Part shown: in pieces, positions 15,804 to 37,020 of the stretch
Layout of the letters: every line of letters begins with the position of its first letter
Position numbering within the stretch: the stretch's first letter is position 1
Assembly: GCF_022012395.1 (NCBI RefSeq)
Contig: NZ_JAKLTQ010000013.1
Location: forward strand, 62,001-126,000
From: Arthrobacter hankyongi
GTDB lineage: Bacteria; Actinomycetota; Actinomycetes; Actinomycetales; Micrococcaceae
DNA: 64,000 bases
Direction: 5' to 3'
Program-made: the position numbers and the translations under genes
The notes under the pieces: model-generated
The model's database searches: none
What the model was told of the DNA's origin: nothing
Seen by the model: the letters and a program-made list of their open reading frames with translations, nothing else

Positions 15804-16534
15804 GCGGCCGGATGCCCATCACCGACTTCGAGACGGTGCTCACCACCACCCGCGCGGTCCGCCGGCGGCTGGACTTCGACCGGCCGGTTCCGGCCTCCGT
15901 GCTCCATGAGTGCCTCGGCCTCGCGCTGCAGGCACCGACCGGAGGCGACGCCGAGGACTGGCGGTTCGTGCTGGTCAACGACCCGGAGACCAGGCAGGCC
16001 ATCGGGGCGGAGTACCTGCGGATCTTCGATGCGAAGATCCGGCCGCGGATGCCGATGCTCCGCCAGGGCGCCACGATGCGCACCCAGGCCCCCGCGCACC
16101 TGGACGAGGCGGTGCAGCGCCGCCGGGCGAAGATCTACGAGAACGCAGCCTACCTCGCGGAGAACATCGGCCGGGCCCCGTGGCTGGTCCTGGCCTGCGC
16201 CACCCGGCCGGACTCGGACGCCCGCATCCGGTCGGCCATCTACGGCTCGGTTTTCCCCGCGGTCTGGTCGTTCCAGCTGGCACTGCGGTCCAGGGGCCTC
16301 GGCTCGGTGATCACCACCCTGCATCTGCGCGAACCCGAAGGGGTGACCCGGATCCTCAGGATCCCCGACGGGGTCACCCAGTGCGCCCTGTTGCCCGTCG
16401 CCTACACGCTGGGCACCGACTTCCGTGCGGCGGCCCGCAAACCCGTCGAGGACGTTACCTTCCTGAACCACTGGGACCATCCGGCCGGGGACCTCGTCTC
16501 CGGCACCGAACCCTTAGGAGCAAACCATGACTGA
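15800..16534 (+). CDS. Nitroreductase-family flavoprotein
   Basis: A 244-residue FMN-binding protein of the nitroreductase superfamily. TTRAVRRRLDFDRPVP near residue 15, QAPTGGDAEDWRFVLVND near residue 50 and a final VAYTLGTDFRAA match the family. Members reduce nitro groups, quinones or enones, or dehalogenate. It overlaps the cyclase gene by 4 bp and the F420 reductase gene by 8 bp. The tight coupling with NpdG suggests a redox step on the same substrate. The electron donor (NAD(P)H or F420H2) is not visible. Confidence 0.87.
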   Translation: MSGRMPITDFETVLTTTRAVRRRLDFDRPVPASVLHECLGLALQAPTGGDAEDWRFVLVNDPETRQAIGAEYLRIFDAKIRPRMPMLRQGATMRTQAPAHLDEAVQRRRAKIYENAAYLAENIGRAPWLVLACATRPDSDARIRSAIYGSVFPAVWSFQLALRSRGLGSVITTLHLREPEGVTRILRIPDGVTQCALLPVAYTLGTDFRAAARKPVEDVTFLNHWDHPAGDLVSGTEPLGANHD

Positions 16535-17198
16535 TGCAGCAATCGCCGTGCTGGGCGGAACCGGGCCGCAGGGCAAGGGACTGGGCTACCGGTTTGCCAA
16601 GGCCGGCCGCCGGGTAATCATCGGCTCGCGGGACGCCGCCAAGGCCTCGGCCGCGGCCGGCGAACTGGACGAAACACTCGGCGGCGACGGCCTGGTGACC
16701 GGGATGGCCAACGCCGAAGCCGCCGCGCAGGCCGGCCTCGTGGTGGTCGCGGTGCCGTGGGACGGGCACAACGAACTGGTCGAATCGCTGCGCGGGGAAC
16801 TGAGCGGGAAGATCGTCGTCAGCTGCGTCAACCCCCTGGGCTTCGACAAGGCGGGGCCGTACGGGCTGGACATGGGCAACAGCAGCGCGGCAGAACAGCT
16901 GCAATCAATCGTTCCGGCCGCCCGGGTGGTCGCGGCCTTCCACCATGTCTCCGCCGCCAACCTGATCGGGCCGGCCGAGAAGCTCGACCACGAGGACATC
17001 CTGGTGGCCGGGGATGACAAGGAAGCGGCCGCGCAAGTACGCGCGCTGGCCGCGACGGTCACCGGCAGCCCCGGCGTCGACGCCGGCCCGCTCCGCCTGG
17101 CCCGGCAGCTCGAACCGCTGACGGCGGTGCTGATCAGCATCAACAAGCGGTACAAGACCCGGTCCGGGGTTTCGATCAGCGGGCTGCCGCAGGACTGA
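16527..17198 (+). CDS. npdG: NADPH-dependent F420 reductase (NpdG/Fno type)
   Basis: A 223-residue Rossmann protein that would transfer hydride between NADPH and coenzyme F420. The N-terminus AVLGGTGPQGKGLGYRFAKA carries the GGTGPQGKG signature of F420:NADP oxidoreductases, IIGSRD follows as in the NADP phosphate-binding site, and VNPLGFDKAGPYGL and FHHVSAANL are further family segments. TTAGGAGCAAACC precedes ATG 16527. It is followed 8 bp later by a Mer-like LLM enzyme, so F420H2 made here is probably used there. In picrate degraders NpdG fills this same role. Confidence 0.93.
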   Translation: MTDAAIAVLGGTGPQGKGLGYRFAKAGRRVIIGSRDAAKASAAAGELDETLGGDGLVTGMANAEAAAQAGLVVVAVPWDGHNELVESLRGELSGKIVVSCVNPLGFDKAGPYGLDMGNSSAAEQLQSIVPAARVVAAFHHVSAANLIGPAEKLDHEDILVAGDDKEAAAQVRALAATVTGSPGVDAGPLRLARQLEPLTAVLISINKRYKTRSGVSISGLPQD

Positions 17199-17205
17199 GC
17201 CCGCC

Positions 17206-18180
17206 GTGGAGACCATGCTGACGTTCGCTCCCTCCGACCTGGCCGAGCTGGGGCGGCAGGCCCGGGCCTGCGAGCGCGCCGGGATCACCGCGGTGGGTGT
17301 GGGCGACTCGCCGGGCTACCACGATCCGTATGTCGCGCTGGCGGTGCTGGCGCAGTGCACCTCCTCGATCCGGATCGGTCCGATGGTCACCAACGTCGTG
17401 ACGCGCGTCCCGCAGGTGTCCGCCGGGGCCATCCGGTCGATCAACGACCTGGCCGGGGCCGGACGGGCCTTCATCGGGCTCGGCGCCGGGGACAGCGCCC
17501 TGGCCGGTGCGCAGGTCCGGCCGGCCGGCGTGGCCGGGCTCCAGCAGGGCATCGAGGCGGTCCGCCGGCATTGGCCGGCGGCGGCAGCGCGGCCCTGGCG
17601 CGTCGTCGTCGCCGCCAACGGGCCGCGGACACTGCGGATGGCGGCAGCCACCGCCGATGTTGTCGTGTCCGGTACCGGGACCGATGACGCGAGCATCCGC
17701 CGGGCGGTGGACCTGGTCGGCGAGGTCCGGCGGGAGCGCGGGCGCGCCGCAGCCCTCTGGGTGGTCGCGCGCATCAGCGTGGGCGAGGACCGCGAGTCGG
17801 CGGTCACCGAGCTCCGGCCCCTGCTGGCCTCCGCCGCCAACCACGTCTTCGCCTCCGCCGCGGAAAGGGACCGCCTCGACGCCCGGACGGCCCGGGCGGT
17901 CGCCCGGCTGCGGCAACGTTACGACTATGCGTCGCATGGCCGCCGCCGGGGGAACCCGAACGCGGAGCTGGTGGACGAACTGGGCCTGCGCGAAACGCTG
18001 GCGGAACGGTTCGCGCTCGCCGGTCCGGCCGGACACGTCGCCGGCCGGCTCGCGGAGCTGGCGCGGGCCGGCGTCGACGGCGTTGTCATACCGGCGGTCG
18101 GGCTCGATGCGGACCGCCTGGTGGAAAACTTAGGCAGCCGGGTGCTTGGCAGGCCCGGGGCACAGCATGCAGGAAATTGA
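17206..18180 (+). CDS. LLM-class oxidoreductase, probably F420-dependent (Mer-like)
   Basis: A 324-residue luciferase-like protein of the methylene-tetrahydromethanopterin-reductase type. AVGVGDSPGYHDPYVALAVL and GRAFIGLGAGDSAL are hallmarks of F420-binding members, and VGVGD replaces the WxxEHH motif of the oxygenase-type paralogues. Its closest relative in the window is the enzyme at 37320. GTG 17206 comes 8 bp after npdG, so both are likely co-translated. Probable reaction: F420H2-dependent reduction of, or hydride transfer to, a pathway intermediate. Confidence 0.88.
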   Translation: METMLTFAPSDLAELGRQARACERAGITAVGVGDSPGYHDPYVALAVLAQCTSSIRIGPMVTNVVTRVPQVSAGAIRSINDLAGAGRAFIGLGAGDSALAGAQVRPAGVAGLQQGIEAVRRHWPAAAARPWRVVVAANGPRTLRMAAATADVVVSGTGTDDASIRRAVDLVGEVRRERGRAAALWVVARISVGEDRESAVTELRPLLASAANHVFASAAERDRLDARTARAVARLRQRYDYASHGRRRGNPNAELVDELGLRETLAERFALAGPAGHVAGRLAELARAGVDGVVIPAVGLDADRLVENLGSRVLGRPGAQHAGN

Positions 18181-18205
18181 CCCATCACAGAAGGAGAGTC
18201 CAACC

Positions 18206-18727
18206 ATGGCTTCAGTAGGCGAGATCCACCACGTTGCGGTGAACGTGCGGGACCTGGACGCGTCGATTCGGTTCTACGGGGACGGGCTTGGCCTGCGGAA
18301 GACCCTGGACATGCCCGTGGGGAACCCCACGACGTGGCGCACCATGGCGCTGCCGGAAGGCACCACCGGCCGGTCCGTCTTTATGCAGGGGCCGACCCGG
18401 GTGGGCCAGCTCGAGCTGCTGCAGTGGGACCTGCCGGTCCCCGAGGACACCCGCCCCAAGCGGGCCGGGGACCCCGGCCCCTGCGTGCTCTCGTTCTCCG
18501 TCTCCCACGACGACATCCGCGAGGTCTACGACCGGCTCCGCAGCATGGACGTGCACTGCTACACGGAACCCACCACCAACATCCTGACCAACTACGGGGC
18601 CGTCACGCTGTTCTTCTGCGAGGACCCGGACGGCAACCAGGTGGAGGTCATTGCGCTGCCCACGTACGAGGAGGTGAAGGCATTCCGTGCCGCGACCATG
18701 GCCGCTGAAGCTCCTGCCGGGCACTGA
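18206..18727 (+). CDS. VOC-family (glyoxalase/dioxygenase fold) protein
   Basis: A 173-residue vicinal-oxygen-chelate protein. GEIHHVAVNVRDLDASIRFY is the standard first strand-helix with a candidate metal His at residue 8 or 9, QLELLQW brings a Glu, and FFCEDPDGNQVEVI the C-terminal strand with another Glu. Epimerases such as methylmalonyl-CoA epimerase, lyases and dioxygenases share this fold. AAGGAGAG precedes ATG 18206. It may epimerise or isomerise a CoA intermediate; this is not proven. Confidence 0.87.
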   Translation: MASVGEIHHVAVNVRDLDASIRFYGDGLGLRKTLDMPVGNPTTWRTMALPEGTTGRSVFMQGPTRVGQLELLQWDLPVPEDTRPKRAGDPGPCVLSFSVSHDDIREVYDRLRSMDVHCYTEPTTNILTNYGAVTLFFCEDPDGNQVEVIALPTYEEVKAFRAATMAAEAPAGH

Positions 18728-22063: not shown

Positions 22064-22066
22064 AGC

Positions 22067-22105
22067 CCGGCGGCAAGGGGCCGGCCGCCGGCCCCTTGCC
22101 GCCGG
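22067..22105. terminator. Bidirectional hairpin terminator
   Basis: A perfect 18-bp inverted repeat (22067-22084 with 22088-22105) with a 3-nt loop lies between the convergent synthetase and thiolase genes. Confidence 0.87.
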
Positions 22106-22109
22106 CGGG

Positions 22110-23327
<1,218 letters not shown>

Positions 23328-23344
23328 CGGGTTCTCCCAACCTA

Positions 23345-23374
23345 TTGAGTAACATACCGACTGGATGGTATCTT
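23345..23374 (+). promoter_or_regulatory. Promoter overlapped by palindromic operator, copy 4
   Basis: TTGAGT (23345-23350) and TATCTT (23369-23374), spaced 18 bp, could drive the 23463 operon. Between them lies ACATACCGACT/GGATGGTATCT (23352-23373), with 7 of 11 positions paired. It matches the sites at 6020, 6085 and 12743 in its left half and sits in the divergent thiolase/dehydrogenase region. Confidence 0.65.
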
Positions 23375-23462: not shown

Positions 23463-24674
23463 GTGAATCGTGCAGCCCAATCACTGGAGGAGTTGCGCTC
23501 CGAAATCAAGCAGTGGATTGCCCGCAACCTGCAGCCGGACCTGGTCGGCATGGACGACATGGACGTGGAGCGGGAGATCTGGGGGAACCCGGACAGCCCG
23601 AAGCACGAGGCCTTCCTCGCCTACGAAAAGGCCTCCCTGGAAGCCGGCCTGGTCTGCCCGCACTGGCCGGCAGAGTACGGCGGCCGGGATTTCGGGGACC
23701 TGGAGATGGCGGTGCTGGCCGAGGAACTGGCGGCGGTGGGCATGCCGCGCCTGACGCGCGGGATGGGCGAGCGGCTGTGCGGCCCGTCGATCATCGCCCA
23801 CGGAACCGAGGAGCAGAAGGCCCGGTTCCTGCCGCGGATCATCAGCGGCGAGGACCGCTACTGCCAGGGCTTCTCCGAGCCCGGCGCCGGTTCGGACCTG
23901 GCCTCGGTCAGCACCCGGGGGGTCGTCGACGGGGACGAGATCGTGATCACCGGCGAGAAGATCTGGACCTCGCGGGCCCACCTGGCCAACATGATGTTCC
24001 TGCTCTGCCGGACCGACCCGGACGCGCCCAAGCACAAGGGGATCTCCTTCGTGATCGTGCCGATGCGCGACAACGGGATCACCATCAGCGAGGTGATCAC
24101 CATGGCCGGTGACAACGCCTTCTGCCAGGAATTCATCGACGGCGCCCGCGCCCCGCTGGCGAACGTCATCGGCGGCCTGGGCGGCGGCTGGAAGGCGGCC
24201 ATGACGACGCTGGGCAGCGAACGCGGTGCCGTGGCGGCGACCCAGCACCTGCAGTACGAGCAGGAGCTCGACGAACTGGTCCGGCGGGCCCGCGAGCTGC
24301 AGCGGCTTGACGACCCCCAGGTCCGCCAGGACCTGGCCTGGGCCTTCTGCCAGGTCCATGTCATGAAGGCCACCGGGCAGCGGGTGCTGGCCAAGCTGGC
24401 CAGCGGCGGGGAAGTGGGTCCGGAGGCTTCGCTGACGAAGCTGGTCTGGAGCGAGTACCACCGCCGGCTGGGCGAAATCGCGGCGGACCTGCAGGGGGCC
24501 CACGCCCTGGTCCGGCCCGAGGGGGACGGGTACAAGGTGGACCGGTGGCAGAAGGCGTTCCTCGCCAGCCGCGCCGAAACCATCTTCGCCGGCACCAGCG
24601 AGGTCCAGCGCCGGATCATTGCCGAACGGGTCCTGGGCCTGCCGCGCGAGCAGTCCGCCGGGGCAGCCAAATGA
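23463..24674 (+). CDS. Acyl-CoA dehydrogenase (FadE type)
   Basis: A 403-residue acyl-CoA dehydrogenase. YCQGFSEPGAGSDLASV (residues about 137-153) and the C-terminal IFAGTSEVQRRIIAERVLGL signatures are intact. The N-terminal EAGLVCPHWPAEYGGRDF is typical of mycobacterial FadE proteins acting on steroid or branched side chains, often as heteromers. GTG 23463 follows TAGGAGATTA. It leads the longest operon of the window (23.5-37.0 kb). A second dehydrogenase two genes on (26847) could be its partner subunit. Confidence 0.92.
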   Translation: MNRAAQSLEELRSEIKQWIARNLQPDLVGMDDMDVEREIWGNPDSPKHEAFLAYEKASLEAGLVCPHWPAEYGGRDFGDLEMAVLAEELAAVGMPRLTRGMGERLCGPSIIAHGTEEQKARFLPRIISGEDRYCQGFSEPGAGSDLASVSTRGVVDGDEIVITGEKIWTSRAHLANMMFLLCRTDPDAPKHKGISFVIVPMRDNGITISEVITMAGDNAFCQEFIDGARAPLANVIGGLGGGWKAAMTTLGSERGAVAATQHLQYEQELDELVRRARELQRLDDPQVRQDLAWAFCQVHVMKATGQRVLAKLASGGEVGPEASLTKLVWSEYHRRLGEIAADLQGAHALVRPEGDGYKVDRWQKAFLASRAETIFAGTSEVQRRIIAERVLGLPREQSAGAAK

Positions 24675-26869
24675 CCCAGCTCATCGATGCCGGGCCGGAC
24701 CGGCGGCACGCACCGCTGCTGGACCGGCTGCTCCAGCCGCGCTCGGTGGCCCTGGTCGGCGCGACCGACCGGTCCCGCTGGTCGTCGCAGACCTTCGAGA
24801 ACCTGCGGCGCTACTCGCCCCAGGTGCCGGTGTACTGCGTGAGCCCGAAAGGCGGGACCGTCCACGGGGTCCGCGCCTACACTTCGCTGGCGGAGATCGG
24901 CGCACCGGTCGACCTGGCCTACGTGATGACGCCGCGGGAAACCGTGCCCGGGATCCTGCGGCAGGCCGGCGCCGCCGGCGCGCGCGCCGCCGTCGTCCTC
25001 ACCGCAGGCTTCGGCGAGACGCCGGACGGCAAGGCGTACCAGGCGGCGGCCGTCGAGGCCGCCGCGGAGGCCGGCGTGGCGCTCCTGGGCCCCAACGGCA
25101 ACGGCTTCATCAATGTGCACGATTCGGTGGTCCCCTTCGGACTGGCGCTGCCCCGGTTTCCGCTGCCCGGGCCGGCCTCGTTCGTCCTGCAGTCCGGGGG
25201 CCTGGTCAAGCCGGTCCTGAGCCTGGCCGACGCCTGGGGCGCAGGGGTAGGCGTTGTGGCCTGCACCGGAAACGAAGCGGCGCTCACCGCCGCCGACGTC
25301 GCGGCCGCCCTCCTCGACGATGAGCGAACCGGCGCCGTCGGGCTCTTCCTCGAGACGATCCGCGACACGGAAGCCTTCCGGCACCTGGCCCGGAAGGCGG
25401 TGGAACTGGACAAGCCGGTCGTCGCCCTGACCGTCGGGCGCAGCGACGCGGCCCGGCGGGCCGCCCAGGCCCACACCGGCGCCCTCGCGGCCGACGCCGC
25501 GGTCTCGTCCGCGGTGCTCAAATCCCTGGGGGTGGTCGAAGTTTCCTCGGTCGAGGAACTGGTGGCCGCCACCGACCTGCTGGCCCGGGGAGTCCGCCCG
25601 CGCGGCCCGAAGATCGCCGTCGTGGGTGCATCCGGCGGCGCCTGCGAACTGGTGGCGGAAAAGGCCTCCGCGCTCGGCCTCACGGTGCCCGAACTCCCGG
25701 AAGCGTGCGTGGCCGCCCTGGCCGAGGTGCTCCCGGACATCTCCCAGGCGCAAAATCCACTGGACGTCACCGGCTTCGCGACCGTCGACCCGATGCTTCC
25801 GGTGCGGGCGCTGGAAGCCATGCTGGCCACCGCCGACACGGACGCGGTGCTGTTCCAGGCGTTCGTGCTGCCACCCGACGACACCGCCGATCCCAACGCC
25901 GCCCGGGCCTACTTCGCCGGGATCGCCCGGGCCGTCCGGTCCGCGGACCTGCCGGTCCTGCTGCAGGACGAGGTGTCGGCCCCGGTGTCCGGGCTCGGCC
26001 GCTCCATCCTCGACACGGAAGGGCTGGTCCGGCTGGCCGGCATCGAGGTCGGCATCACCGCCCTGGCGCATGCCGTGCGCTGGACCGCGTCCCGCCGCGC
26101 CCTGCTGTCGCGCCAGGCCGAAGACCGGGCCGCCGTCGTGCTGGCCCGGCCGGACAAATCCGCCGCGCTCTCGGAATTCGACGCCCTCAGGCTGCTGGCC
26201 GCCGGCGGGGTGCCGGTCATCCCGCAGACCTTGGCCACCTGTCCCCGGGAGGCCGTGCAGGCGGCCGCGGCCCTGAAGGGACCGGCCGTGCTGAAGGTCT
26301 GCTCCCCGGACATCGCACACAAGTCGGACATCGGCGGCGTGGTCCTCAACGTCCAGGGCGAGGCCGCAGTCGCGGCCGCCTACAACGGCATCATGAATCG
26401 GGTGCCGGCCCAGCTGCCCGAGGCCCGCATCGACGGAGTACTGGTCTCCCCGATGCGGTCCGGGGGGATCGAACTGATCGCCGGCATCAACCGCGACCCG
26501 GTGTGGGGGCCGGTCCTCCTCCTGGGCATGGGCGGCGTCCTGGTCGAGGTCCTGAAGGACGTGGCGCTGCGGCCGCTGCCCGTCACCCGCGCCGATATCG
26601 CCGAGATGCTGGCGGAGCTGCGGGCCGCCCCGCTGCTGCACGGCGTCCGCGGCCAGGCCCCCATCGCGCTCGAGGCGCTGGCCGATGCGGTGCTCGCCCT
26701 CACCGATGTGGCCGCCGCCCTCGGCGGCGAGTTGCAGTCTATCGAGATCAACCCCCTGCGTGCGGACCATACGACCGTCGAGGCGCTTGACGCGCTCATC
26801 GTCTGGGCCGACGACGCCGTTTCCGACGTGGAAGAAGGAGAATCCAATGACGTTGAGCTACACCGCTGA
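24671..26869 (+). CDS. Fused NDP-forming acyl-CoA synthetase, second copy
   Basis: A 732-residue paralogue of the protein at 19973 with the same three-domain order. CoA-binding VALVGATDRSRW is near residue 28, the phospho-His is His268 in AQAHTGALAA, and the ATP-grasp segment VCSPDIAHKSDIGGVV is near residue 540. It overlaps the dehydrogenases on both sides (4 bp and 23 bp). Two such enzymes in one proposed regulon is uncommon. They may act at different chain-length steps or in opposite directions. Confidence 0.9.
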   Translation: MTQLIDAGPDRRHAPLLDRLLQPRSVALVGATDRSRWSSQTFENLRRYSPQVPVYCVSPKGGTVHGVRAYTSLAEIGAPVDLAYVMTPRETVPGILRQAGAAGARAAVVLTAGFGETPDGKAYQAAAVEAAAEAGVALLGPNGNGFINVHDSVVPFGLALPRFPLPGPASFVLQSGGLVKPVLSLADAWGAGVGVVACTGNEAALTAADVAAALLDDERTGAVGLFLETIRDTEAFRHLARKAVELDKPVVALTVGRSDAARRAAQAHTGALAADAAVSSAVLKSLGVVEVSSVEELVAATDLLARGVRPRGPKIAVVGASGGACELVAEKASALGLTVPELPEACVAALAEVLPDISQAQNPLDVTGFATVDPMLPVRALEAMLATADTDAVLFQAFVLPPDDTADPNAARAYFAGIARAVRSADLPVLLQDEVSAPVSGLGRSILDTEGLVRLAGIEVGITALAHAVRWTASRRALLSRQAEDRAAVVLARPDKSAALSEFDALRLLAAGGVPVIPQTLATCPREAVQAAAALKGPAVLKVCSPDIAHKSDIGGVVLNVQGEAAVAAAYNGIMNRVPAQLPEARIDGVLVSPMRSGGIELIAGINRDPVWGPVLLLGMGGVLVEVLKDVALRPLPVTRADIAEMLAELRAAPLLHGVRGQAPIALEALADAVLALTDVAAALGGELQSIEINPLRADHTTVEALDALIVWADDAVSDVEEGESNDVELHR

Positions 26870-27968
26870 ACACGAGGAGTTGCGGGGCTCCGTCCGCCGG
26901 CTGCTGGCCGAGCAGGCCGGCAGCGCACAGCTTCGCCAGCTGATCGATTCGCCGGAACCCTACGATGCCTCGCTGTGGAAGACGATGGCCCAGGAACTCG
27001 GACTCCACGGCATGGCCATCCCCGAGGAGTACTCGGGCTCCGGGTACGGCTTCCTGGAACAGGCCGTGGTGATGGAGGAAATGGGCCGGGCGGTGCACCG
27101 CTCGCCGTACTTCTCCACCGTCATCCTGGCCGCCACCGCCCTGCAGTTGGCCGACCAGGAAGACGCGCGGGCCCGGTGGCTTCCCGGCATCGCCAGCGGG
27201 GAGACCGTGGGCACGGTTGCGCTCGCCGAGGCCGACGGCGACTGGACGGCACCGCGGGTTGCCACCAGGGCCCGGGCCGGGGACGGCGGCTACCGCCTCC
27301 ACGGCACCAAGCACTTCGTCACCGACGGCGCGGCCGCGGACCTGATTATCGTGCTGGCGGACAGCGACGACGGCGAGCTGCTGCTGGCCGTGGACGCGCA
27401 GGATCCGGGGGTCACGGTGGCCGATGTCCCGGTCCTTGACCAGACCCGGCCGCTGGCCACGATCACGTTCGACGGGGCCGCCGGAACGGTGCTCACCGCC
27501 GGTGCCCGCACCCGGGAGGTGCTCGCCGGGCTGCTGGACACGGCGCTGGCGGCCCTGGCCGCCGAGCAGGTCGGCGGCGCCGGCCGCGCGCTCGAGATGG
27601 CGGTGGAGTATGCGAAGATCCGCGAGCAGTTCGGGGCCGCCATCGGCAGCTTCCAGGCGATCAAGTTCAAGGCCGCCGACATGCTGCTGCAGCTGGAGGC
27701 CGCCCGCTCCGCCGCCCTCTACGCCGCCCGCGCCGTCGCCGAGGACGCCGCCGACCGGACGGTGGCCGCCGCCGTGGCCAAGGCCGTCTGCTCGGAGGGG
27801 TACTTTGCCATCGCCGCCGAATCCATCCAGATCCACGGCGGCATCGGGTTCACCTGGGAGCACGACGCCCACCTCTACTTCAAGCGGGCCAAGGCCTCGG
27901 AGCTGCTGTTCGGCAATGCCGGCGTGCACCGCGAACGCCTGGCCCGGCAGCTGGGGTGGACGGCATGA
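26847..27968 (+). CDS. Acyl-CoA dehydrogenase
   Basis: A 373-residue acyl-CoA dehydrogenase, on the short side. IPEEYSGSGYGFLEQAVVMEE is typical for the N-terminal helical domain; the late QIHGGIGFTWEHDAHLYFKRA is the FadE signature found in alpha2beta2 steroid-type dehydrogenases. The central signature reads VALAEADGDW rather than the SEPxAGSD seen in neighbours, which suggests a non-catalytic or specialised partner subunit. AAGGAG precedes ATG 26847, which overlaps the synthetase by 23 bp. It may pair with the gene product at 23463. Confidence 0.88.
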   Translation: MTLSYTAEHEELRGSVRRLLAEQAGSAQLRQLIDSPEPYDASLWKTMAQELGLHGMAIPEEYSGSGYGFLEQAVVMEEMGRAVHRSPYFSTVILAATALQLADQEDARARWLPGIASGETVGTVALAEADGDWTAPRVATRARAGDGGYRLHGTKHFVTDGAAADLIIVLADSDDGELLLAVDAQDPGVTVADVPVLDQTRPLATITFDGAAGTVLTAGARTREVLAGLLDTALAALAAEQVGGAGRALEMAVEYAKIREQFGAAIGSFQAIKFKAADMLLQLEAARSAALYAARAVAEDAADRTVAAAVAKAVCSEGYFAIAAESIQIHGGIGFTWEHDAHLYFKRAKASELLFGNAGVHRERLARQLGWTA

Positions 27969-28378
27969 GCGAGAAGGCCGCTCCCCGGCCCACGCCCGAC
28001 ACCCAGCCGTTCTTCGACGCCGCGGCCCGGGGCGAGCTGAGCCTGCCCAAGTGCCGCGACTGCGGGGAGCTCTTCTTCTACCCCCGCAGCTGGTGCCCGC
28101 GCTGTTCCTCGGCGGATCTGGAATGGACGCCGTGCTCGGGACGGGCGCGGCTGCACTCCTACCTGATCAACACCCGCCCCGCGCCGGGCTTCGAGGACGA
28201 GACCCCGTACTCGATCGCCGTCGTCGAACTTGAGGAAGGGCCGCGCATGATGACCAATATCGTCGGCGTTCCCCAGACGCCGGAGCACCTAGTGCTGGAC
28301 ATGGAACTCGAGGTGGTGTTCGACAAGCACGGCGAAGTGGCCGTGCCGAAGTTCATGCCGGCAGGTGGCGCGCGATGA
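27965..28378 (+). CDS. Zn-ribbon/OB-fold DUF35 protein (ChsH2-like partner of the thiolase-fold enzyme)
   Basis: A 137-residue protein with a rubredoxin-like zinc ribbon (Cys30, Cys33, Cys44, Cys47) followed by an OB-fold. DUF35 proteins form complexes with thiolase-fold Ltp2-type enzymes, or with MaoC-like subunits, in side-chain degradation of steroids. Here it overlaps the thiolase-fold gene at 28375 by 4 bp, so a two-subunit complex is very likely. Confidence 0.9.
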   Translation: MSEKAAPRPTPDTQPFFDAAARGELSLPKCRDCGELFFYPRSWCPRCSSADLEWTPCSGRARLHSYLINTRPAPGFEDETPYSIAVVELEEGPRMMTNIVGVPQTPEHLVLDMELEVVFDKHGEVAVPKFMPAGGAR

Positions 28379-29535: not shown

Positions 29536-29564
29536 AACCACTGCCACCCAAAGGAGGGACACCT

Positions 29565-30470
29565 ATGAACGAGCCCATCTGCGACGGCCGCGTCGTGATC
29601 GTCACCGGCGCCGGCGGAGGCATCGGCCGGTACCATGCCCTGGAATTCGCGCGGCAGGGCGCCAAGGTCGTGGTCAATGACCGCGGCGTGCGGGTCGACG
29701 GCTCCGACGGCGCCCGGGAAACGGTGTCGGCGGCCGACGCCGTCGTCGCCGAAATCATCGAACGCGGCGGCGAGGCCGTGGCCGACTACCACGATGTGTC
29801 CGACATGGCGGGCGCCGAGGCCCTGGTGCAGCGGGCCGTCGACGAATTCGGACAGCTCAACGTGCTGGTGAACAACGCCGGCATTGTCCGCGACCGCACG
29901 GTGGCGAACATGGCCGAGTCCGAATGGGACGACGTCATCCGGGTGCATCTGAAGGGCACCTTCGCGCCCACCCACTTCGCGAGCCGGTACTGGCGCTCCC
30001 TGCACAAGGAGGGACGCCCGGTGCCGGCCCGGATCGTCAACACGACCTCGACCTCGGGCCTGTTCGGCAACCCCGGACAGTCGAACTACGGCGCCGCCAA
30101 GGCCGGGATCGCCTCCTTCACCATGATCACGGCGATGGAACTGCACCGCTACGGGATCAAGGTCAACGCCGTTTCCCCGGGCGCCCGGACCCGGATGACC
30201 GCCGGCCTGATCGACGAGCCGGAGGGCGACTTCGACCCGTTCGACCCGGCCGCCATCGCCCCGTTTGTGGTGTGGCTGGGCTCCGACGCGGCCGGCGAGA
30301 TGACCGGGCAGGTGCTGGCGGTCTCGGGCGGAACCGTCACGGTGCTCGAGCCCTGGCGCCCGGGACCGTCCGAGGAACGCCCGCACCTCTTCTCGGTCCA
30401 GGACGTCGCCGACGTCGTGCCGAAGCTGCTGGCCGACGCCTACATCAATCCGCGCCTGCCCCAGGGCTGA
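29565..30470 (+). CDS. SDR-family 3-hydroxyacyl-CoA dehydrogenase, MFE-2 type
   Basis: A 301-residue short-chain dehydrogenase, paralogous to the one at 13969 over its whole length. TGAGGGIGRYHALEFARQGA binds the cofactor, NNAGIVRDRTV and SNYGAAKAG hold the structural Asn and the catalytic Tyr-Lys. AAAGGAGGG precedes ATG 29565. With the MaoC hydratase 18 bp downstream it makes the two activities that eukaryotic MFE-2 carries on one chain, here as separate genes. Confidence 0.92.
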   Translation: MNEPICDGRVVIVTGAGGGIGRYHALEFARQGAKVVVNDRGVRVDGSDGARETVSAADAVVAEIIERGGEAVADYHDVSDMAGAEALVQRAVDEFGQLNVLVNNAGIVRDRTVANMAESEWDDVIRVHLKGTFAPTHFASRYWRSLHKEGRPVPARIVNTTSTSGLFGNPGQSNYGAAKAGIASFTMITAMELHRYGIKVNAVSPGARTRMTAGLIDEPEGDFDPFDPAAIAPFVVWLGSDAAGEMTGQVLAVSGGTVTVLEPWRPGPSEERPHLFSVQDVADVVPKLLADAYINPRLPQG

Positions 30471-30488
30471 ACGGGAGAGGAAAAAACC

Positions 30489-31388: not shown

Positions 31389-31429
31389 AGACATTCCACA
31401 CAACTTTCGCACCACAGAAGGAGACATCC

Positions 31430-32611: not shown

Positions 32612-32641
32612 AGTCCGGCCGTAACGAACTGGGAGAGTCAG

Positions 32642-33424
32642 ATGAAAATTGCAGTGCTGGTAAAGCAGGTGCCGGACACCTACGGCGACCGCAGGATGGA
32701 CCCGGCCACCCGGACCGTGGACCGCGGTTCGGCCGATCCGGTGATCGACGAGATCAACGAGCGGGCCGTGGAGGCCGCGCTCCAAATCAAGGAGGCGGGG
32801 GACGGCGTGACGGTCACCGCCGTCACCATGGGACCCGTCCGGGCGGTGGAGGCGCTGCGCAAGGCCCTGGCCATGGGCGCCGATTCGGCCGTGCACATCT
32901 GTGACGACACGCTGGCCGGCTCCGACGCCATGCAGACCTCCGAGGTGCTGGCCGCCGCGCTCGCGGGCCGGGACTTCGACCTGGTCATCGCCGGCAACGA
33001 GTCCACGGACGGCCGGACCGCGGCCGTGCCGGCGATGCTCGCCGAACGCCTCGGGATGGCCCAGCTGACGTTCCTGCGCACCGTCACGGTCAGCGGCGGC
33101 AGCGTGTCCGGCGAGCGGATGACCGGGAACGGGTACGTGGAGGCACAGGCGCCCCTGCCCGCGGTGGTCTCGGTCACCGAGCAGTCGGCCGAACCGCGGT
33201 TCCCGAAGTTCCGCGGGATCATGGCCGCGAAGAAGAAGCCGCTGCAGACCCTGACCCTGGCCGAACTGGGCCTCCCCGGCGGCGAGGCCGGCGGGGAAAA
33301 CTCCTGGTCCCGGGTCCTGGACGTCACCGCGCGGCCCGCACGCACGGCCGGGACGGTGGTCACCGACGACGGGACCGCCGGTACCCAGGTCGCCGAGTAC
33401 CTCGCCGCCGCCAAACTGATCTAG
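32642..33424 (+). CDS. etfB: Electron transfer flavoprotein, beta subunit
   Basis: A 260-residue ETF beta subunit, opening with the family-typical MKIAVLVKQVPDTYGDR. AGNESTDGRTAAVPAMLAERLG lies in the AMP-binding region. It accepts electrons from the acyl-CoA dehydrogenases. A dedicated EtfBA pair inside the cluster, next to four dehydrogenase genes, suggests a high flux or a specific electron route. It is 26 bp from etfA. Confidence 0.96.
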   Translation: MKIAVLVKQVPDTYGDRRMDPATRTVDRGSADPVIDEINERAVEAALQIKEAGDGVTVTAVTMGPVRAVEALRKALAMGADSAVHICDDTLAGSDAMQTSEVLAAALAGRDFDLVIAGNESTDGRTAAVPAMLAERLGMAQLTFLRTVTVSGGSVSGERMTGNGYVEAQAPLPAVVSVTEQSAEPRFPKFRGIMAAKKKPLQTLTLAELGLPGGEAGGENSWSRVLDVTARPARTAGTVVTDDGTAGTQVAEYLAAAKLI

Positions 33425-33450
33425 CCGCAGCTTTCCGGAAAGGAAAAAAG

Positions 33451-34440
33451 ATGTCCCAGGTGCTTGTCCTTGCCGAACACGTGCAGGGCGAACTGAAAAA
33501 CAACGTGGCCGAGCTGCTGGCGGCCGCCGCACGGCTCGGGGAGCCGGCCGCCGTCGTCGTGCGCCAGCCGGGAACCGGCGCGCAGCTGACCGCCCGGCTC
33601 GGCGAACTCGGCGCCGCCGCGGTGTACGTCGCCGACGTCGAGGAAGCCGACGCGCTGCTGGTCACCCCGCAGGTCGCCGCCCTGGCCGCCGCGGTGGCCG
33701 CCGCCGGCGACGTCTCCGCGGTGCTGGTGGGCACGTCGATCGACAGCCGCGAAGCCGCGGCCCGCCTGGCCGTCCGCCTCGGCGCGGCATTCCTCAGCGA
33801 CGTCGTGGACCTGGCAGCAGCGCCCGACGGCGTGCGGGCCACCCAGCAGGCCTTCGGCGGCGCGTACACGGTCACCGCCACGGCGGCGCGCGGAATCCCG
33901 GTGATTTCGCTGCGCCCCAACTCCGTGCCCGGAACGGCCCCCGCCGCCCAGGCCCAGGAGATCCGGCTCGCACCCGGCCCGAACATGGCCGCCGCGGCCC
34001 GGATCACGGCCCGCCACGAAGGGCAGGCCGTCTCCACCCGTCCGGAGCTGACGGCGGCCGATATCGTCGTCTCGGGCGGCCGCGGCCTGGGTTCGGCCGA
34101 AAACTTCGTGCTGGTCGAGCAGTTGGCCGACGCCCTGGGGGCGGCCGTCGGCGCCTCGCGCGCCGCCGTCGACGCCGGCTACTGTGCCCACACGATGCAG
34201 GTGGGCCAGACCGGCACCACCGTCTCGCCCAACCTCTATCTCGCCCTGGGTATCTCGGGAGCGATCCAGCACCGTGCCGGCATGCAGAGCGCCAAAACGA
34301 TCGTGGCCATCAACAAGGACCCGGGCGCACCCATCTTCGAGATAGCGGATTTCGGCGTCGTCGGCGATGTCTTCACCGTGGTGCCGCAGCTGATCGAGGC
34401 CGTCAACGCGCGGCAGGCGGTCGGCAGCCCGGCCGGCTGA
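33451..34440 (+). CDS. etfA: Electron transfer flavoprotein, alpha subunit
   Basis: A 329-residue ETF alpha subunit. The FAD domain is recognisable by SGGRGLGSAENFVLVEQLA, VGQTGTTVSPNLYLALGISG and INKDPGAPIFEIADFGVVGD. GGAAAGGAAA precedes ATG 33451. The usual acceptor, ETF-quinone oxidoreductase, is not in the window; a cytochrome b-type membrane protein two genes on might be related to electron disposal. Confidence 0.96.
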   Translation: MSQVLVLAEHVQGELKNNVAELLAAAARLGEPAAVVVRQPGTGAQLTARLGELGAAAVYVADVEEADALLVTPQVAALAAAVAAAGDVSAVLVGTSIDSREAAARLAVRLGAAFLSDVVDLAAAPDGVRATQQAFGGAYTVTATAARGIPVISLRPNSVPGTAPAAQAQEIRLAPGPNMAAAARITARHEGQAVSTRPELTAADIVVSGGRGLGSAENFVLVEQLADALGAAVGASRAAVDAGYCAHTMQVGQTGTTVSPNLYLALGISGAIQHRAGMQSAKTIVAINKDPGAPIFEIADFGVVGDVFTVVPQLIEAVNARQAVGSPAG

Positions 34441-34528
34441 GCAGGCCGCCGCGAGCACATGCCGGAACCGGCACCCAGACACAACCGAGCGGGCGGGCCG
34501 CAGCGGCCGCCCAAGGGGGATTCACAGC

Positions 34529-35290
34529 ATGGAAATTTCGCAATCAGCAGCCCTGGTCACCGGCGGCGCGTCCGGACTGGGCCTGGCCACGGCCACCCTG
34601 CTGCATGAGGCCGGGGCCTCGGTGGTCCTGGTCGACCTGCCGCAGTCCGCGGGCGAGGAGCAGGCGGCCCGCCTCGGGAACCGGGCGGCGTTTGTGGCCG
34701 CCGATGTCACGGACCCGGACCAGGTGGCGGCGGCGATCGACAGGGCCGGTTCGCTCGGCCCGCTGCGCATCACGGTCAACTGCGCCGGCGTCGCCACGCC
34801 CGGAAAAATCATCGGCCGCTCCGGCCCGCTCCCGCTCGAGGACTTCGAGCGCGTGGTGCGGATCAACCTCGGGGGCACCTTCAATGTCCTCCGGCTGGCC
34901 GCCGCGGCCATGCAGGCGCTGGAACCGGCCGGCGAGGAACGCGGGGTCATCATCAATACCGCGTCGGTCGCGGCGTTCGACGGGCAGATCGGCCAGCCGG
35001 CCTATGCCGCCTCGAAGGCCGCCGTGGCGGGACTGACCCTGCCCGCGGCCCGCGAATTCGCCGCCAGCCTCATCCGGGTGGTGGCCATTGCCCCGGGCAT
35101 CTTCGAGACCCCGATGATGGCCGGCCTGCCGGAGAACGCCCGCGAGTCGCTGGGCAGCCAGGTCCCCCACCCCTCGCGGCTGGGGCGCCCGGACGAATAC
35201 GCCCAGCTCGTCCGGCACATTGTGGAAAACCCGATGCTCAACGGCGAGACGATCCGCCTGGACGGCGCCATCAGGATGGCTCCGCGATGA
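34529..35290 (+). CDS. SDR-family oxidoreductase, 3-hydroxyacyl-CoA dehydrogenase type 2-like (HSD10-like)
   Basis: A 253-residue short-chain dehydrogenase with TGGASGLGLATA for NAD, NCAGVATPGKIIGRSGPLPLE typical of type-10 17-beta-hydroxysteroid dehydrogenase/3-hydroxy-2-methylbutyryl-CoA dehydrogenases, and YAASKAA at the active site. Such enzymes oxidise 2-methyl-branched 3-hydroxyacyl-CoAs, which would suit a branched or isoprenoid-like substrate. It stands 88 bp after etfA with CAAGGGGGA near its ATG. Confidence 0.9.
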   Translation: MEISQSAALVTGGASGLGLATATLLHEAGASVVLVDLPQSAGEEQAARLGNRAAFVAADVTDPDQVAAAIDRAGSLGPLRITVNCAGVATPGKIIGRSGPLPLEDFERVVRINLGGTFNVLRLAAAAMQALEPAGEERGVIINTASVAAFDGQIGQPAYAASKAAVAGLTLPAAREFAASLIRVVAIAPGIFETPMMAGLPENARESLGSQVPHPSRLGRPDEYAQLVRHIVENPMLNGETIRLDGAIRMAPR

Positions 35291-35315
35291 GCCCGCTTCG
35301 GAGGAAGGCAGCGTA

Positions 35316-36248
35316 ATGTCCACTTCGACACGACCATCCCCGGTCACCCATGCCCGGTGGTTCAAGCCCGCCGTCGCCGGCGCCGCCGCCCTGGCGGCAC
35401 TGGTGCTGGTGGTGCTGGCGGCCCAGGGGCTGCGGACCCTGCCCGCGGTCCAGTCCTTCATCGCCGACTATCCGGGCCATACGGACCTGCCGGCGGGCGC
35501 GCCGACCGGGCTGCCGGCCTGGCTGGGCTGGCAGCATTTCCTCAACGCCTTCTTCATCGTCCTGATCATCAGGTCGGGGTGGCGGGTGCGCACCGTGACC
35601 CGGCCGCAGGCCTACTGGACCAGGAACAACAGCGGCCCGGTCCGGACCAAGAACCCGCCGCAGAAGATCAGCCTGGACCTGTGGTTCCACCTGAGCCTCG
35701 ATGCGCTCTGGGTGCTCAACGGGCTGGTCTTTATGGTCCTGCTCTTCGGGACCGGCCAGTGGATGCGGATCGTGCCGACCAGCTGGGACGTCATCCCGAA
35801 CGCGATCTCCACCGCGCTTCAATATGCCTCGCTGGACTGGCCCACCGAAAACGGCTGGGTGGCCTACAACAGCCTGCAGGTGCTGGCCTACTTCAGCATC
35901 GTCTTCATTGCCGCCCCGCTGGCGCTGCTCACCGGCCTGCGGATGTCCCCGGCCTGGCCGAAGAACGCGCCGGGACTCAACAGGCTCTACCCGGTCGAGG
36001 CGGCCCGGGCCGTCCACCTGCCGGTCATGTTCTATTTCGCGGCCTTTGTGGTGGTGCACGTGAGCTTGGTGCTGGCGACCGGAGCGCTGCGGAACCTGAA
36101 CCACATGTACGGATCACGTGATGACGCCAGTTGGGTGGGGTTCTGGATCTTCGCGGCCTCGCTGGTGGTCATGGTCGCTGCCTGGTTCCTGGCCCGGCCG
36201 CTTTTCCTGCGCCCCGTCGCCTCGCTGTTCGGGAAGGTCACGCGGTAG
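35316..36248 (+). CDS. Cytochrome b/b6-domain membrane protein
   Basis: A 310-residue protein with about five or six transmembrane segments and several helix-borne His residues (GWQHFLNAF, LWFHLSLDAL, AVHLPVMFYF, VVVHVSLV) that could ligate b-type haem. The family is often encoded beside a molybdopterin or other oxidoreductase subunit; none is adjacent here. GGAGGAAG precedes ATG 35316. Located among ETF and dehydrogenase genes, it might link cytosolic reducing equivalents to the respiratory chain, but no direct evidence exists. Confidence 0.82.
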   Translation: MSTSTRPSPVTHARWFKPAVAGAAALAALVLVVLAAQGLRTLPAVQSFIADYPGHTDLPAGAPTGLPAWLGWQHFLNAFFIVLIIRSGWRVRTVTRPQAYWTRNNSGPVRTKNPPQKISLDLWFHLSLDALWVLNGLVFMVLLFGTGQWMRIVPTSWDVIPNAISTALQYASLDWPTENGWVAYNSLQVLAYFSIVFIAAPLALLTGLRMSPAWPKNAPGLNRLYPVEAARAVHLPVMFYFAAFVVVHVSLVLATGALRNLNHMYGSRDDASWVGFWIFAASLVVMVAAWFLARPLFLRPVASLFGKVTR

Positions 36249-36276
36249 GAATGGGTCAGCAGGGGAGTGGCAGCAG

Positions 36277-37020
36277 ATGAAGGAAACCACGGTTCCGGCC
36301 GGCGGGGCCGCGTGGGCCTGGACGGTCGTCATCCCGTTCAAGGGCGGCCCCGGCGCCAAGAGCCGACTCGGCACCGGCACGCCGGGAACCGCGGGGTTCC
36401 GGCCCGACGTGCGGCAGGCCTTGGCCTTGGCCTTCCTGGCTGACACAGTTGCCGCCGCGCAGGCGGTGCCCGCAGTCGGTCGGATCGTGATCGCCTCCTC
36501 CGACCAGGCCGTGCTCACCGTCCCGGACATCGTCCTGGTCGCCGACCCCGGACGGGGACTGAACGCCGCCGTTACCGCAGGCGTCGAATGGGCCCGGGAA
36601 CAGCAGGACGGCGGCCCGGTCGCAGTCCTGGCCGGCGACCTGCCGTCCCTGACCTCCGGCGACCTGGCCGCCGCCCTGGACCTGGCCGCTGGCCACCGGC
36701 TGGCCTTGGTGCCGGACCGCCACGGCACCGGCACTACCCTGATTACCGCCGCCCCTGGAACCGAACTAGTACCGAGGTTCGGCCCCGGATCCTGCGAGGC
36801 GCACCGGCGGGATGGGCACTTCCTGCTGCCCGTGTCCGCGGCCTCCACCCTGCGCGCCGACGTCGACACGCCCGCCGACCTCGACCGAGCCCTGCGCCGC
36901 GGCACCGGCCCCCGCACCCGCGCCATAGTCCTGCGATCCGGGCCTACGGCAGCGGGGGGCACAATCAGGAATGGCTCCCGCGCATGGCGGCCGGCGAGGC
37001 CATCGGCTGCTTCGGCCTGA
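36277..37020 (+). CDS. cofC: CofC/FbiD-type guanylyltransferase of coenzyme F420 biosynthesis, C-terminus altered
   Basis: A 247-residue nucleotidyltransferase of the CofC family, which activates 2-phospholactate or phosphoenolpyruvate for F420 assembly. VVIPFKGGPGAKSRL, AVLAGDLPSLTSGDLAAAL and the end motif LRADVDTPADLDRAL are all recognisable. The family usually stops shortly after this last motif; here about 25 extra residues come from reading a piece of acyl-CoA dehydrogenase DNA (from 36941) out of frame. The core looks complete, so activity is plausible. It links F420 supply with the F420-type enzymes of the cluster. Confidence 0.87.
   Translation: MKETTVPAGGAAWAWTVVIPFKGGPGAKSRLGTGTPGTAGFRPDVRQALALAFLADTVAAAQAVPAVGRIVIASSDQAVLTVPDIVLVADPGRGLNAAVTAGVEWAREQQDGGPVAVLAGDLPSLTSGDLAAALDLAAGHRLALVPDRHGTGTTLITAAPGTELVPRFGPGSCEAHRRDGHFLLPVSAASTLRADVDTPADLDRALRRGTGPRTRAIVLRSGPTAAGGTIRNGSRAWRPARPSAASA

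What the first reader, a model, noticed from the sequence alone, without database searches (positions are those of the whole stretch)
16527..37020. Coenzyme F420 supply genes inside a beta-oxidation regulon
An F420:NADP oxidoreductase (16527) is immediately followed by a Mer-like LLM enzyme, and a CofC-type F420 biosynthesis gene ends the large operon at 36.3 kb. Two more F420-type LLM genes lie just beyond. F420 biosynthesis genes usually sit elsewhere as housekeeping genes. Placing reductase, consumer and a biosynthesis gene with acyl-CoA dehydrogenases suggests a catabolic route whose key step needs F420H2 in quantity. The only well-known parallel I can name is picrate/dinitrophenol degradation, which has a different accessory set.
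Basis: partly seen in the sequence, partly recalled or inferred. Interest (0 to 1): 0.72.

Follow-up and report, generated by a model that had tools for sequence, protein, structure and literature searches.

The report
Catabolic island carrying F420 supply genes
A soil bacterium of a family that seldom carries the genes to make the rare coenzyme F420 seems to have acquired a degradation gene cluster together with genes that make and recharge that coenzyme, which would let a pathway travel with its own cofactor supply.

Summary
NpdG (16527-17198, over its curated cut-off), a Mer-like LLM gene (17206-18180) and a CofC/FbiD gene (36277-37020, over cut-off) lie in two tight operon-like runs rich in acyl-CoA genes. 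cofC is the last gene of a 13-gene run and of a G+C-rich block that ends there (71.6% before, 64.3% after). LLM genes 37320 and 40352 lie outside it.

Beyond the window: fbiC (FO synthase) was found in 8 of 295 family genomes, in all 8 beside catabolic genes. Close NpdG relatives were in 6 of 295, all among the 15 with cofC. This genome has a second cofC, another npdG-cofD-fbiC locus 3 kb past the window and, by inference, two fbiC copies. Three relatives have complete cofD-fbiC-cofC-cofE operons near npdG and beta-oxidation genes. An R. opacus plasmid carries npdG-fbiC-cofC beside beta-oxidation genes.

Best reading: a horizontally acquired catabolic island bringing part of its own F420 supply. 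Substrate, F420 use by the LLM and regulation are not shown. Picrate is not the only parallel. Side finding: a FecCD-type transporter beside cof genes where fbiC is missing, a candidate F420-precursor importer.

The parts
9700..10683 (+). metallo-beta-lactamase-fold hydrolase, near the left side of the G+C-rich block
   Evidence: PF00753; relative in the G669 cluster, 39%
10739..12295 (+). AMP-forming acyl-CoA ligase
   Evidence: PF00501, PF13193 (longer ORF); gene call
12773..13972 (+). acyl-CoA dehydrogenase, first gene of run 1
   Evidence: PF00441/PF02770/PF02771 (longer ORF)
13969..14856 (+). short-chain dehydrogenase, 57% to SDRs of the G534 and G669 clusters
14853..15803 (+). putative cyclase/metal-dependent hydrolase
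   Evidence: PF04199
15800..16534 (+). nitroreductase-family protein; not BluB or FbiB C-terminal domain by cut-off
   Evidence: PF00881; BluB 47.5 of 150, FbiB_CTERM 23.6 of 249.55 bits, both on the longer ORF 14939-16534
16527..17198 (+). NpdG, NADPH:F420 oxidoreductase
   Evidence: TIGR01915 212.1 of 149.8 bits; 5n2i E 1.6e-65
17206..18180 (+). Mer-like LLM oxidoreductase, presumed F420H2 user
   Evidence: PF00296; solved relatives all named Mer or F420-dependent; nearest match outside itself is paralog LLM 37320, 40%
18206..18727 (+). VOC-family protein
   Evidence: PF00903
18759..19976 (+). MFS transporter
   Evidence: PF05977, PF07690
19973..22063 (+). ATP-grasp acyl-CoA ligase (ADP-forming type), last gene of run 1
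   Evidence: PF13549, PF13607, PF13380
22110..23327 (-). 3-oxoadipyl-CoA thiolase PcaF
   Evidence: TIGR02430 650.9 of 597 bits
23463..24674 (+). acyl-CoA dehydrogenase, first gene of run 2
24671..26869 (+). ATP-grasp acyl-CoA ligase
   Evidence: longer ORF
26847..27968 (+). acyl-CoA dehydrogenase
   Evidence: longer ORF
27956..28378 (+). ChsH2-type zinc-ribbon/OB protein
   Evidence: PF01796, PF12172
28375..29535 (+). thiolase-like/lipid-transfer-type protein
   Evidence: PF22691; 55% to G534 and G669 proteins
29565..30470 (+). short-chain dehydrogenase
   Evidence: PRK07791 395.9 of 373 bits
30489..31388 (+). MaoC / MFE-2 hydratase-2 enoyl-CoA hydratase
   Evidence: PF01575, PF22622
31430..32611 (+). 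acyl-CoA dehydrogenase
   Evidence: longer ORF 30542-32611; gene call
32642..34440 (+). EtfB (32642-33424) and EtfA (33451-34440)
   Evidence: PF01012, PF00766
34529..35290 (+). short-chain dehydrogenase, about 60% to SDRs in the G085 and G082 islands
35316..36248 (+). cytochrome b561-like membrane protein
   Evidence: PF01292 at 30.0 of 30.1 bits, just under cut-off; 318 relatives in genome contigs, of which the 80 kept are mostly Arthrobacter and kin, often with EtfBA in the fetched flank
36277..37020 (+). CofC/FbiD guanylyltransferase, last gene of run 2 and of the G+C-rich block
   Evidence: TIGR03552 140.4 of 105 bits; 6bwg E 3.5e-23 with PEP-site residues kept
37320..38345 (+). second Mer-like LLM, outside the G+C-rich block
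40352..41323 (+). TIGR03841-family F420 LLM, outside the block
   Evidence: 345.4 of 213.65 bits

Best explanation
The G+C-rich block of about 9.2-37.0 kb is a horizontally acquired catabolic island. It activates a (probably cyclic) acid to its CoA ester, oxidises it by acyl-CoA dehydrogenases that pass electrons to its own ETF and perhaps to the b561-like protein, and ends through PcaF at 3-oxoadipyl-CoA. One step is an F420H2-dependent reduction by the LLM at 17206; NpdG beside it recharges F420 from NADPH; the terminal cofC raises supply of the F420 side-chain precursor. The rest of the synthesis pathway (fbiC, cofD, cofE, another cofC) came on other acquired segments of the same genome. 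Shown: gene identities by sequence, gene order, the right-hand G+C border, extra F420 genes, rarity of fbiC and cofC in the family, recurrence of the arrangement. Inferred: acquisition as a unit, F420 use by the LLM, direction of hydride flow, substrate class.
For: Identities. cofC is last in a 13-gene run, gaps at most 88 bases; GC 71.6% in 9191-37020 against 64.3% to the right, 66.0% to the left and 68.1% over 91,039 bases of six other stretches; third-position GC falls from 0.85-0.95 (cofC itself 0.85, the lowest of run 2) to 0.72-0.81 after 37.0 kb. Extra copies in this genome: cofC 2 over cut-off, cofD 2 over cut-off, npdG 3 over cut-off; fbiC at least 2 by inference, since contigs C5 and C31 each end in a FbiC fragment matching residues 1-94 and C37 matches residues 95-910 of the G030 protein. 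Rarity: cofC in 15 of 295 family genomes, fbiC in 8 of 295. NpdG of 53% identity or more in 6 of 295, all 6 cofC-positive (5.8e-9 by hypergeometric count without correction for kinship). R. opacus pRho-VOC14-L: NpdG and FbiC over cut-off, then cofC, followed by CoA ligase, hydratase/hydroxyacyl-CoA dehydrogenase, thiolase, two acyl-CoA dehydrogenases, family III CoA-transferase and an F420 LLM over cut-off. Relatives of the LLM in G534 and G669 lie with homologs of the island's SDR, MaoC, ChsH2-like and thiolase-like genes; all 3 of 3 other class genomes with such an LLM carry fbiC over cut-off.
Against: No activity, expression or substrate data. LLM 17206 scores under every curated F420-LLM cut-off listed, and no structure could be predicted. 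A complete F420 operon is not in the window: only cofC is. The ETF-b561 module is common in Arthrobacter and kin without F420 genes: F420 synthesis genes lay in the fetched flanks of only 2 of 80 loci. Borders were not searched systematically for integrases or transposases. The left border is gradual (GC3 0.89 already at 8175). G622, the third genome with a related LLM, lacks the shared cluster in the 13 kb fetched. This genome also has other F420 uses (C31, C1), so the F420 genes need not serve this pathway alone. C37 is a 3.2 kb contig of 74.9% GC, so contamination is not fully excluded for the second cofC and most of fbiC, although the fragments on C5 and C31 argue against it.
Confidence: 0.6

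Rival explanations
1. The terminal cofC is a remnant: an acquired cofD-fbiC-cofC-cofE operon sat beside the ETF-b561 genes, much as in G085 and G030, and lost all but cofC, which no longer matters to the pathway because another cofC exists.
For: The complete operon lies directly beside EtfB-EtfA-b561 in G030 and one transporter gene away in G085; a second cofC is present on C37.
Against: The gene is intact, over its cut-off, keeps all 7 of 7 alignable substrate and metal residues and sits co-directionally 28 bases after the preceding gene. dN 0.23 and dS 0.51 against the C37 copy point to constraint, though weakly. In G030 and G085 the F420 operon runs opposite to ETF-b561.
Confidence: 0.22
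2. F420 in this strain serves mainly the dihydropyrimidinase-type clusters and native F420 LLM enzymes; NpdG and cofC in the window add to the general pool and have no special link to the acyl-CoA route.
For: C31 holds an fbiC fragment, NpdG, a Mer-like LLM and dihydropyrimidinase; C1 holds cofE with a TIGR03842 LLM, dihydropyrimidinase and C-N hydrolase.
Against: NpdG, LLM and cofC are embedded in the two acyl-CoA runs with overlaps or small gaps, and three other genomes link NpdG and F420 synthesis to beta-oxidation genes.
Confidence: 0.12
3. The LLM proteins use FMN, and the CofC-like gene is another nucleotidyltransferase, so there is no F420 theme.
For: LLM 17206 and 37320 miss all listed F420 cut-offs; LLM 8175 next to a flavin reductase (9191) is probably FMN-dependent.
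Against: NpdG and CofC pass equivalog cut-offs. Solved relatives of LLM 17206 are named Mer or F420-dependent in 10 of 10; for LLM 37320 in the first 9 of 19 and in 12 of 19 overall, the other 7 being luciferase-like or FMN-type enzymes with weaker scores from the tenth row on.
Confidence: 0.06

Closest known systems
npd picrate/2,4-dinitrophenol clusters of Rhodococcus opacus and Nocardioides (PMC8498797, passages read)
   Same: NpdG/Fno-type F420 reductase with an LLM-family hydride transferase in catabolism (the review passages name Fno and the picrate reductase; the cluster layout is recalled, from no call)
   Different: Here with CoA ligases, acyl-CoA dehydrogenases, ETF, MaoC, PcaF and a biosynthesis gene cofC; host family mostly lacks fbiC
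Rhodococcus jostii RHA1 plasmid pRHL3 (NC_008271.1)
   Same: fbiC-cofC on a plasmid typed mobilizable, near an LLM, a flavin reductase, a deazaflavin-dependent nitroreductase and SDR genes
   Different: No NpdG found in the 36.6 kb stretch; F420 is probably recharged by plasmid-encoded FGD1, RHA1_RS43115 (PMC5352752 passage; three tags beyond RHA1_RS43100 by tag number, not displayed)
Rhodococcus opacus VOC-14 plasmid pRho-VOC14-L (NZ_CP130956.1)
   Same: npdG-fbiC-cofC beside CoA ligase, hydratase/dehydrogenase, thiolase, two acyl-CoA dehydrogenases, CoA-transferase and an F420 LLM
   Different: CofC only 39% identical; no ETF or b561 match in the stretch; record carries no gene annotation there
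F420 islands of G085, G030 (Zafaria cholistanensis) and G082
   Same: CofC 60-63% to the window copy, CofD 74-84% and NpdG about 64% to the C5-end copies; ETF and b561 homologs in G085 and G030, an SDR like 34529 in all three
   Different: Carry the complete cofD-fbiC-cofC-cofE operon, a P450 system, a KstD-like FAD enzyme (scored in G085 only) and an FMO/Baeyer-Villiger-like enzyme (scored in G082); no LLM like 17206 among the genes of the stretches fetched

Membership tests
NpdG (NADPH-dependent F420 reductase) | score over the curated equivalog cut-off | tested here: met
   212.1 of 149.8 bits
NpdG (NADPH-dependent F420 reductase) | homology to a solved F420:NADP oxidoreductase over nearly the whole length | tested here: met
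   5n2i, residues 4-218 of 223, E 1.6e-65
NpdG (NADPH-dependent F420 reductase) | hydride transfer between NADPH and F420 | not testable with these tools
   needs an enzyme assay
CofC/FbiD | score over the curated equivalog cut-off | tested here: met
   140.4 of 105 bits
CofC/FbiD | three-aspartate metal site and PEP-binding residues of Mtb FbiD | tested here: met
   L92, D116, T148, G163, S166, D188, D190 all kept, 7 of 7, in the alignment, counted by hand with an inferred tag offset of 14; K17 is outside the local alignment; residues named in passages of PMC6450877 and PMC8764529
CofC of 3PG-F420 type | serine in place of FbiD G163 | tested here: not met
   glycine at that position, so ordinary F420 is expected
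F420-dependent LLM oxidoreductase (LLM 17206) | score over a curated F420-LLM cut-off | tested here: not met
   best TIGR03842 95 of 295.45; Mer 70.5 of 348.7
F420-dependent LLM oxidoreductase (LLM 17206) | closest solved relatives use F420 | tested here: met
   10 of 10 at E<=0.01 named Mer or F420-dependent, three of them 'putative'
F420-dependent LLM oxidoreductase (LLM 17206) | F420 pocket in a model structure | not tested
   structure machine busy six times
F420-dependent LLM oxidoreductase (LLM 40352) | score over TIGR03841 cut-off | tested here: met
   345.4 of 213.65
npd picrate-degradation cluster | NpdG present | tested here: met
npd picrate-degradation cluster | hydride transferases and tautomerase acting on nitrophenols | not tested
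   no sequence of these proteins was compared; layout recalled only
FbiB C-terminal domain (dehydro-F420 reductase) | nitroreductase 15800 over the FbiB_CTERM cut-off | tested here: not met
   23.6 of 249.55 bits, on the longer ORF

The most novel reading that the evidence does not exclude
In Arthrobacter and kin F420 is normally scavenged: a FecCD-type importer brings in an F420 precursor and CofE traps it by glutamylation. Mobile catabolic islands that carry npdG, fbiC, cofC, cofD and cofE turn such scavengers into producers, so a cofactor-dependent degradation pathway spreads with its own cofactor supply.
Probability: 0.3. Interest if true: 0.8.

Novelty: new variant of a known kind. Interest (0 to 1): 0.62.

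Why it matters
F420-dependent degradation has been studied mainly in genera that already make F420. If catabolic islands and plasmids bring the coenzyme's synthesis and recharging with them, a rare cofactor is no barrier to gene transfer, and looking for cof/fbi genes outside their usual places becomes a way to find unknown F420-dependent catabolic steps. The pathway here can be tested genetically in a soil Arthrobacter.

Tried and rejected
Rejected: nitroreductase 15800 as an FbiB-like or BluB enzyme (both far under cut-off). Rejected: the b561-like protein as an F420-specific partner; of 318 relatives found, 80 were kept, and only 2 of these 80 (L082, a short contig of a metagenome bin labelled Akkermansiaceae, and L134) had F420 synthesis genes within the fetched DNA. 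Rejected: a 3PG-F420-type CofC. Led nowhere: exact overlaps between contig ends C5, C31, C37, C65 and C25 (none of 15 bases or more); LLM 17206 on plasmids (no match at E<=1e-20); NpdG on plasmids gave 3 distant hits not followed (E<=1e-30; it did not list the R. opacus NpdG that one search found at 40% identity). Papers on monoterpenes with F420 or carvone reductase and on FO salvage (none) gave no lead. The substrate was not identified: a terpenoid or alicyclic acid is a guess from PcaF, the cyclase-like hydrolase and the enzymes of the G085-type islands.

Dropped rows: 22 genomes matched at E<=1e-20; I count as close NpdG only the 6 with 53% identity or more (E<=4e-69); the other 16 genomes have 34-41% (E>=1e-24) and none is among the 15 cofC genomes. 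The cut was made after seeing the gap. In one search and under-cut-off matches are not counted as copies (npdG: 3 of 6 matches are over; cofD: 2 of 3).

Full report
What is there. The window is bases 62001-126000 of contig C5 of a 5.19 Mb genome in 67 contigs. Named loci found through the b561-like gene are mostly Arthrobacter, Paenarthrobacter and Pseudarthrobacter (80 kept of 318), and genome G030 of the same family matches Zafaria cholistanensis NCCP-1664 (contig length 254,703; CofE 100% alike). The host is therefore a member of the same family, probably Arthrobacter in the wide sense; the genome itself is unnamed. Genes were called by a codon-usage script and named with Pfam and NCBIfam. 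Run 1 (12773-22063, 9 genes): acyl-CoA dehydrogenase, SDR, cyclase-type hydrolase, nitroreductase, NpdG, LLM, VOC, MFS, ATP-grasp CoA ligase. A - strand gene follows, a PcaF-type 3-oxoadipyl-CoA thiolase. Run 2 (23463-37020, 13 genes): dehydrogenase, ATP-grasp ligase, dehydrogenase, ChsH2-like, thiolase-like, SDR, MaoC, dehydrogenase, EtfB, EtfA, SDR, b561-like, CofC. Gaps are at most 31 bases in run 1 and 88 in run 2.

F420 identity. NpdG and CofC pass equivalog cut-offs. CofC keeps the PEP and metal residues of Mtb FbiD at all 7 alignable positions, with glycine where 3PG-F420 enzymes have serine (residues from passages of PMC6450877 and PMC8764529). LLM 17206 is a divergent Mer-like protein: under all listed cut-offs, yet its 10 solved relatives at E<=0.01 are all named Mer or F420-dependent. 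In 394 genomes of the class, 4 including this one have a relative at E<=1e-25; the closest is the paralog LLM 37320 (40%). The 3 other genomes all hold fbiC over cut-off, on another contig (G534, G622) or about 0.9 Mb away (G669). In two of them, G534 and G669, the LLM lies with homologs of the window's SDR, MaoC, ChsH2-like and thiolase-like genes; in the third, G622, it does not in the 13 kb fetched.

A block with a border. G+C is 71.6% in 9191-37020, 64.3% to the right, 66.0% to the left, and 68.1% over six other stretches of the genome, 91,039 bases. Third-position G+C drops right after cofC. cofC is thus inside the block and LLM 37320 outside it. The left border is gradual.

More F420 genes in the genome. 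cofC twice: window and C37, 70% identical. cofD twice over cut-off: C12 and C5:129974, the latter right after a second NpdG at C5:129256, about 3-4 kb past the window's end. A third NpdG over cut-off lies on C31. The only long fbiC is on C37, a 3.2 kb contig of 74.9% GC that matches FbiC residues 95-910 and holds cofC; C5 and C31 each end in a fragment matching residues 1-94, 268 of 282 bases alike. I infer at least two fbiC copies collapsed in C37. cofE: one complete copy on C1 and two C-terminal fragments at the ends of C65 and C25 (in one search only the C25 fragment was aligned, the C65 translation gave no hit), which suggests two more copies.

Rarity and company. Of 295 family genomes, 15 have a cofC match at E<=1e-10 to the window protein and 8 have fbiC at E<=1e-60, 4 of them over the curated cut-off. 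Among the 10 genomes of the genus, this one included, cofE is in 8, fbiC over cut-off in 2, cofC in 2. NpdG of 53% identity or more is in 6 of 295 family genomes, all 6 cofC-positive; 2 of these 6 (G140, G244) lack fbiC. Chance overlap without correction for kinship is 5.8e-9. In all 8 fbiC genomes the F420 genes sit beside catabolic genes: in this genome with NpdG, P450 and ferredoxin-type genes at the end of C5 (P450) and with dihydropyrimidinase on C31; in G085, G030 and G082 with NpdG and beta-oxidation genes; in G066, G096, G227 and G289 with dihydropyrimidinase and a TIGR03842 LLM, all over cut-off, and C-N hydrolase homologs. G085, G030 and G082 have the complete cofD-fbiC-cofC-cofE operon within about 7-12 kb of NpdG; in G030 it is directly beside EtfB-EtfA-b561, in G085 one transporter gene away, and in G082 no ETF or b561 was seen in the stretch. 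A CofC tree of 18 rows puts window, C37, G085, G030, G082 and G140 together with moderate support (81/88, not starred); four of the five dihydropyrimidinase-type rows group apart (87/92), while the fifth, G244, sits on a long branch elsewhere.

Plasmid parallels. Of 72,556 plasmids, 2 matched the window CofC at E<=1e-8, both in Rhodococcus and both typed mobilizable. pRHL3 of R. jostii RHA1 has fbiC-cofC by an LLM, a flavin reductase and a deazaflavin-dependent nitroreductase. pRho-VOC14-L of R. opacus VOC-14 has NpdG (180.3 of 149.8 bits), FbiC (1272.5 of 1018) and cofC (PF01983 43.2 of 22) followed by CoA ligase, hydratase/hydroxyacyl-CoA dehydrogenase, thiolase, two acyl-CoA dehydrogenases, family III CoA-transferase and an F420 LLM (TIGR03617, 360.3 of 278.15).

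Mechanism. CoA ligases activate the substrate; acyl-CoA dehydrogenases pass electrons to ETF; MaoC, SDR and thiolases shorten it, with 3-oxoadipyl-CoA as a likely late intermediate because PcaF passes its cut-off. NpdG most likely makes F420H2 from NADPH for the LLM, which would reduce a double bond or carbonyl. CofC raises the supply of F420. Only gene identities and order are shown; the rest is inference from enzyme families.

Literature. The review PMC8498797 (passages) describes horizontal transfer of F420 biosynthesis genes between lineages and picrate degradation, and says that beyond nitroaromatics little is known of F420's roles in Rhodococcus, Nocardia and Nocardioides. PMC5352752 (passages) notes plasmid-encoded FGD1 and FGD3 in RHA1; the terms pRHL3 and cofC do not occur in its main text. 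Searches for F420 with Arthrobacter and cofC or horizontal transfer (none), with pRHL3 (none), with catabolic Rhodococcus terms (16 papers) and with genomic islands and beta-oxidation (15 of 20 listed) gave no listed paper whose title or abstract start describes catabolic islands carrying F420 synthesis; besides the two just named only PMC13101518 was opened from these lists (passages, LLM genes in transcript tables). The library lacks most subscription journals.

Side finding. In cofC-positive genomes without fbiC, a transporter of the Peripla_BP_2/FecCD type lies next to cofD or cofC: 6 of 7 (G140, G202, G239, G244, G285 and G231, the last with only a broken match; not G015), against 0 of 7 fbiC-positive loci of G085, G030, G082, G066, G096, G227 and G289 (one-sided Fisher 0.0023, about 0.01 if G231 is not counted, no correction for kinship; distant ATPase matches of 32-33% were not counted, and only the 14-20 kb fetched at each locus were looked at). 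This genome is left out of that count and is an exception at genome level: it has fbiC and also the transporter, beside cofD on C12. Lack of fbiC at E<=1e-60 comes for all 7; five of them (not G202 and G285) were rechecked at E<=0.001, where only G140 gave a 19-bit match. In 4 of 4 genus-mates looked at (G062, G122, G151, G163), none with cofC at E<=1e-10 or fbiC over cut-off, the same transporter lies between cofE and a dihydropyrimidinase-LLM cluster; cofD was not searched there. I read the transporter as a candidate importer of FO or F420-0.

Noticed in passing
L025:3098-5764 (own C12) with cofD at 5917-6942; also L055, L058, L059, L064, L211 and L212-L215: Peripla_BP_2 / FecCD / ATPase transporter beside cofC, cofD or cofE in genomes in which FO synthase was not found; candidate importer of an F420 precursor.
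   Followed up: partly
L021 (own C31, 14 kb): fbiC fragment, class III aminotransferase, dihydropyrimidinase (over cut-off), Mer-like LLM (under cut-off), NpdG (over cut-off), two C-N hydrolases with identical starts, cytosine/uracil-type permease, zinc ADH, ALDH: looks like reductive pyrimidine or hydantoin breakdown with an F420 LLM.
   Followed up: partly
L060, L061, L062, L063, L064 and L024: TIGR03842 LLM next to dihydropyrimidinase, C-N hydrolase and cof genes (LLM over cut-off in the 5 scored, L064 by homology only); own C1 (L024) has the same set with cofE only.
   Followed up: partly
genus-mates of the window genome, e.g. G062, G122, G151, G163: cofE is in 8 of 10 genus genomes but fbiC over cut-off in 2 of 10 and cofC in 2 of 10; an incomplete F420 pathway seems the rule there. 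cofD was not searched in the genus.
   Followed up: partly
window 1918-9703: A second cluster of LLM genes (2730, 6120, 8175) with enoyl-CoA hydratases, an AMP-ligase-like gene and a flavin reductase overlapping LLM 8175, which suggests an FMN-dependent two-component monooxygenase.
   Followed up: no
window 38641-39207: Short zinc-dehydrogenase fragment (ADH_zinc_N only), probably a broken gene, between LLM 37320 and an HxlR-type regulator gene.
   Followed up: no
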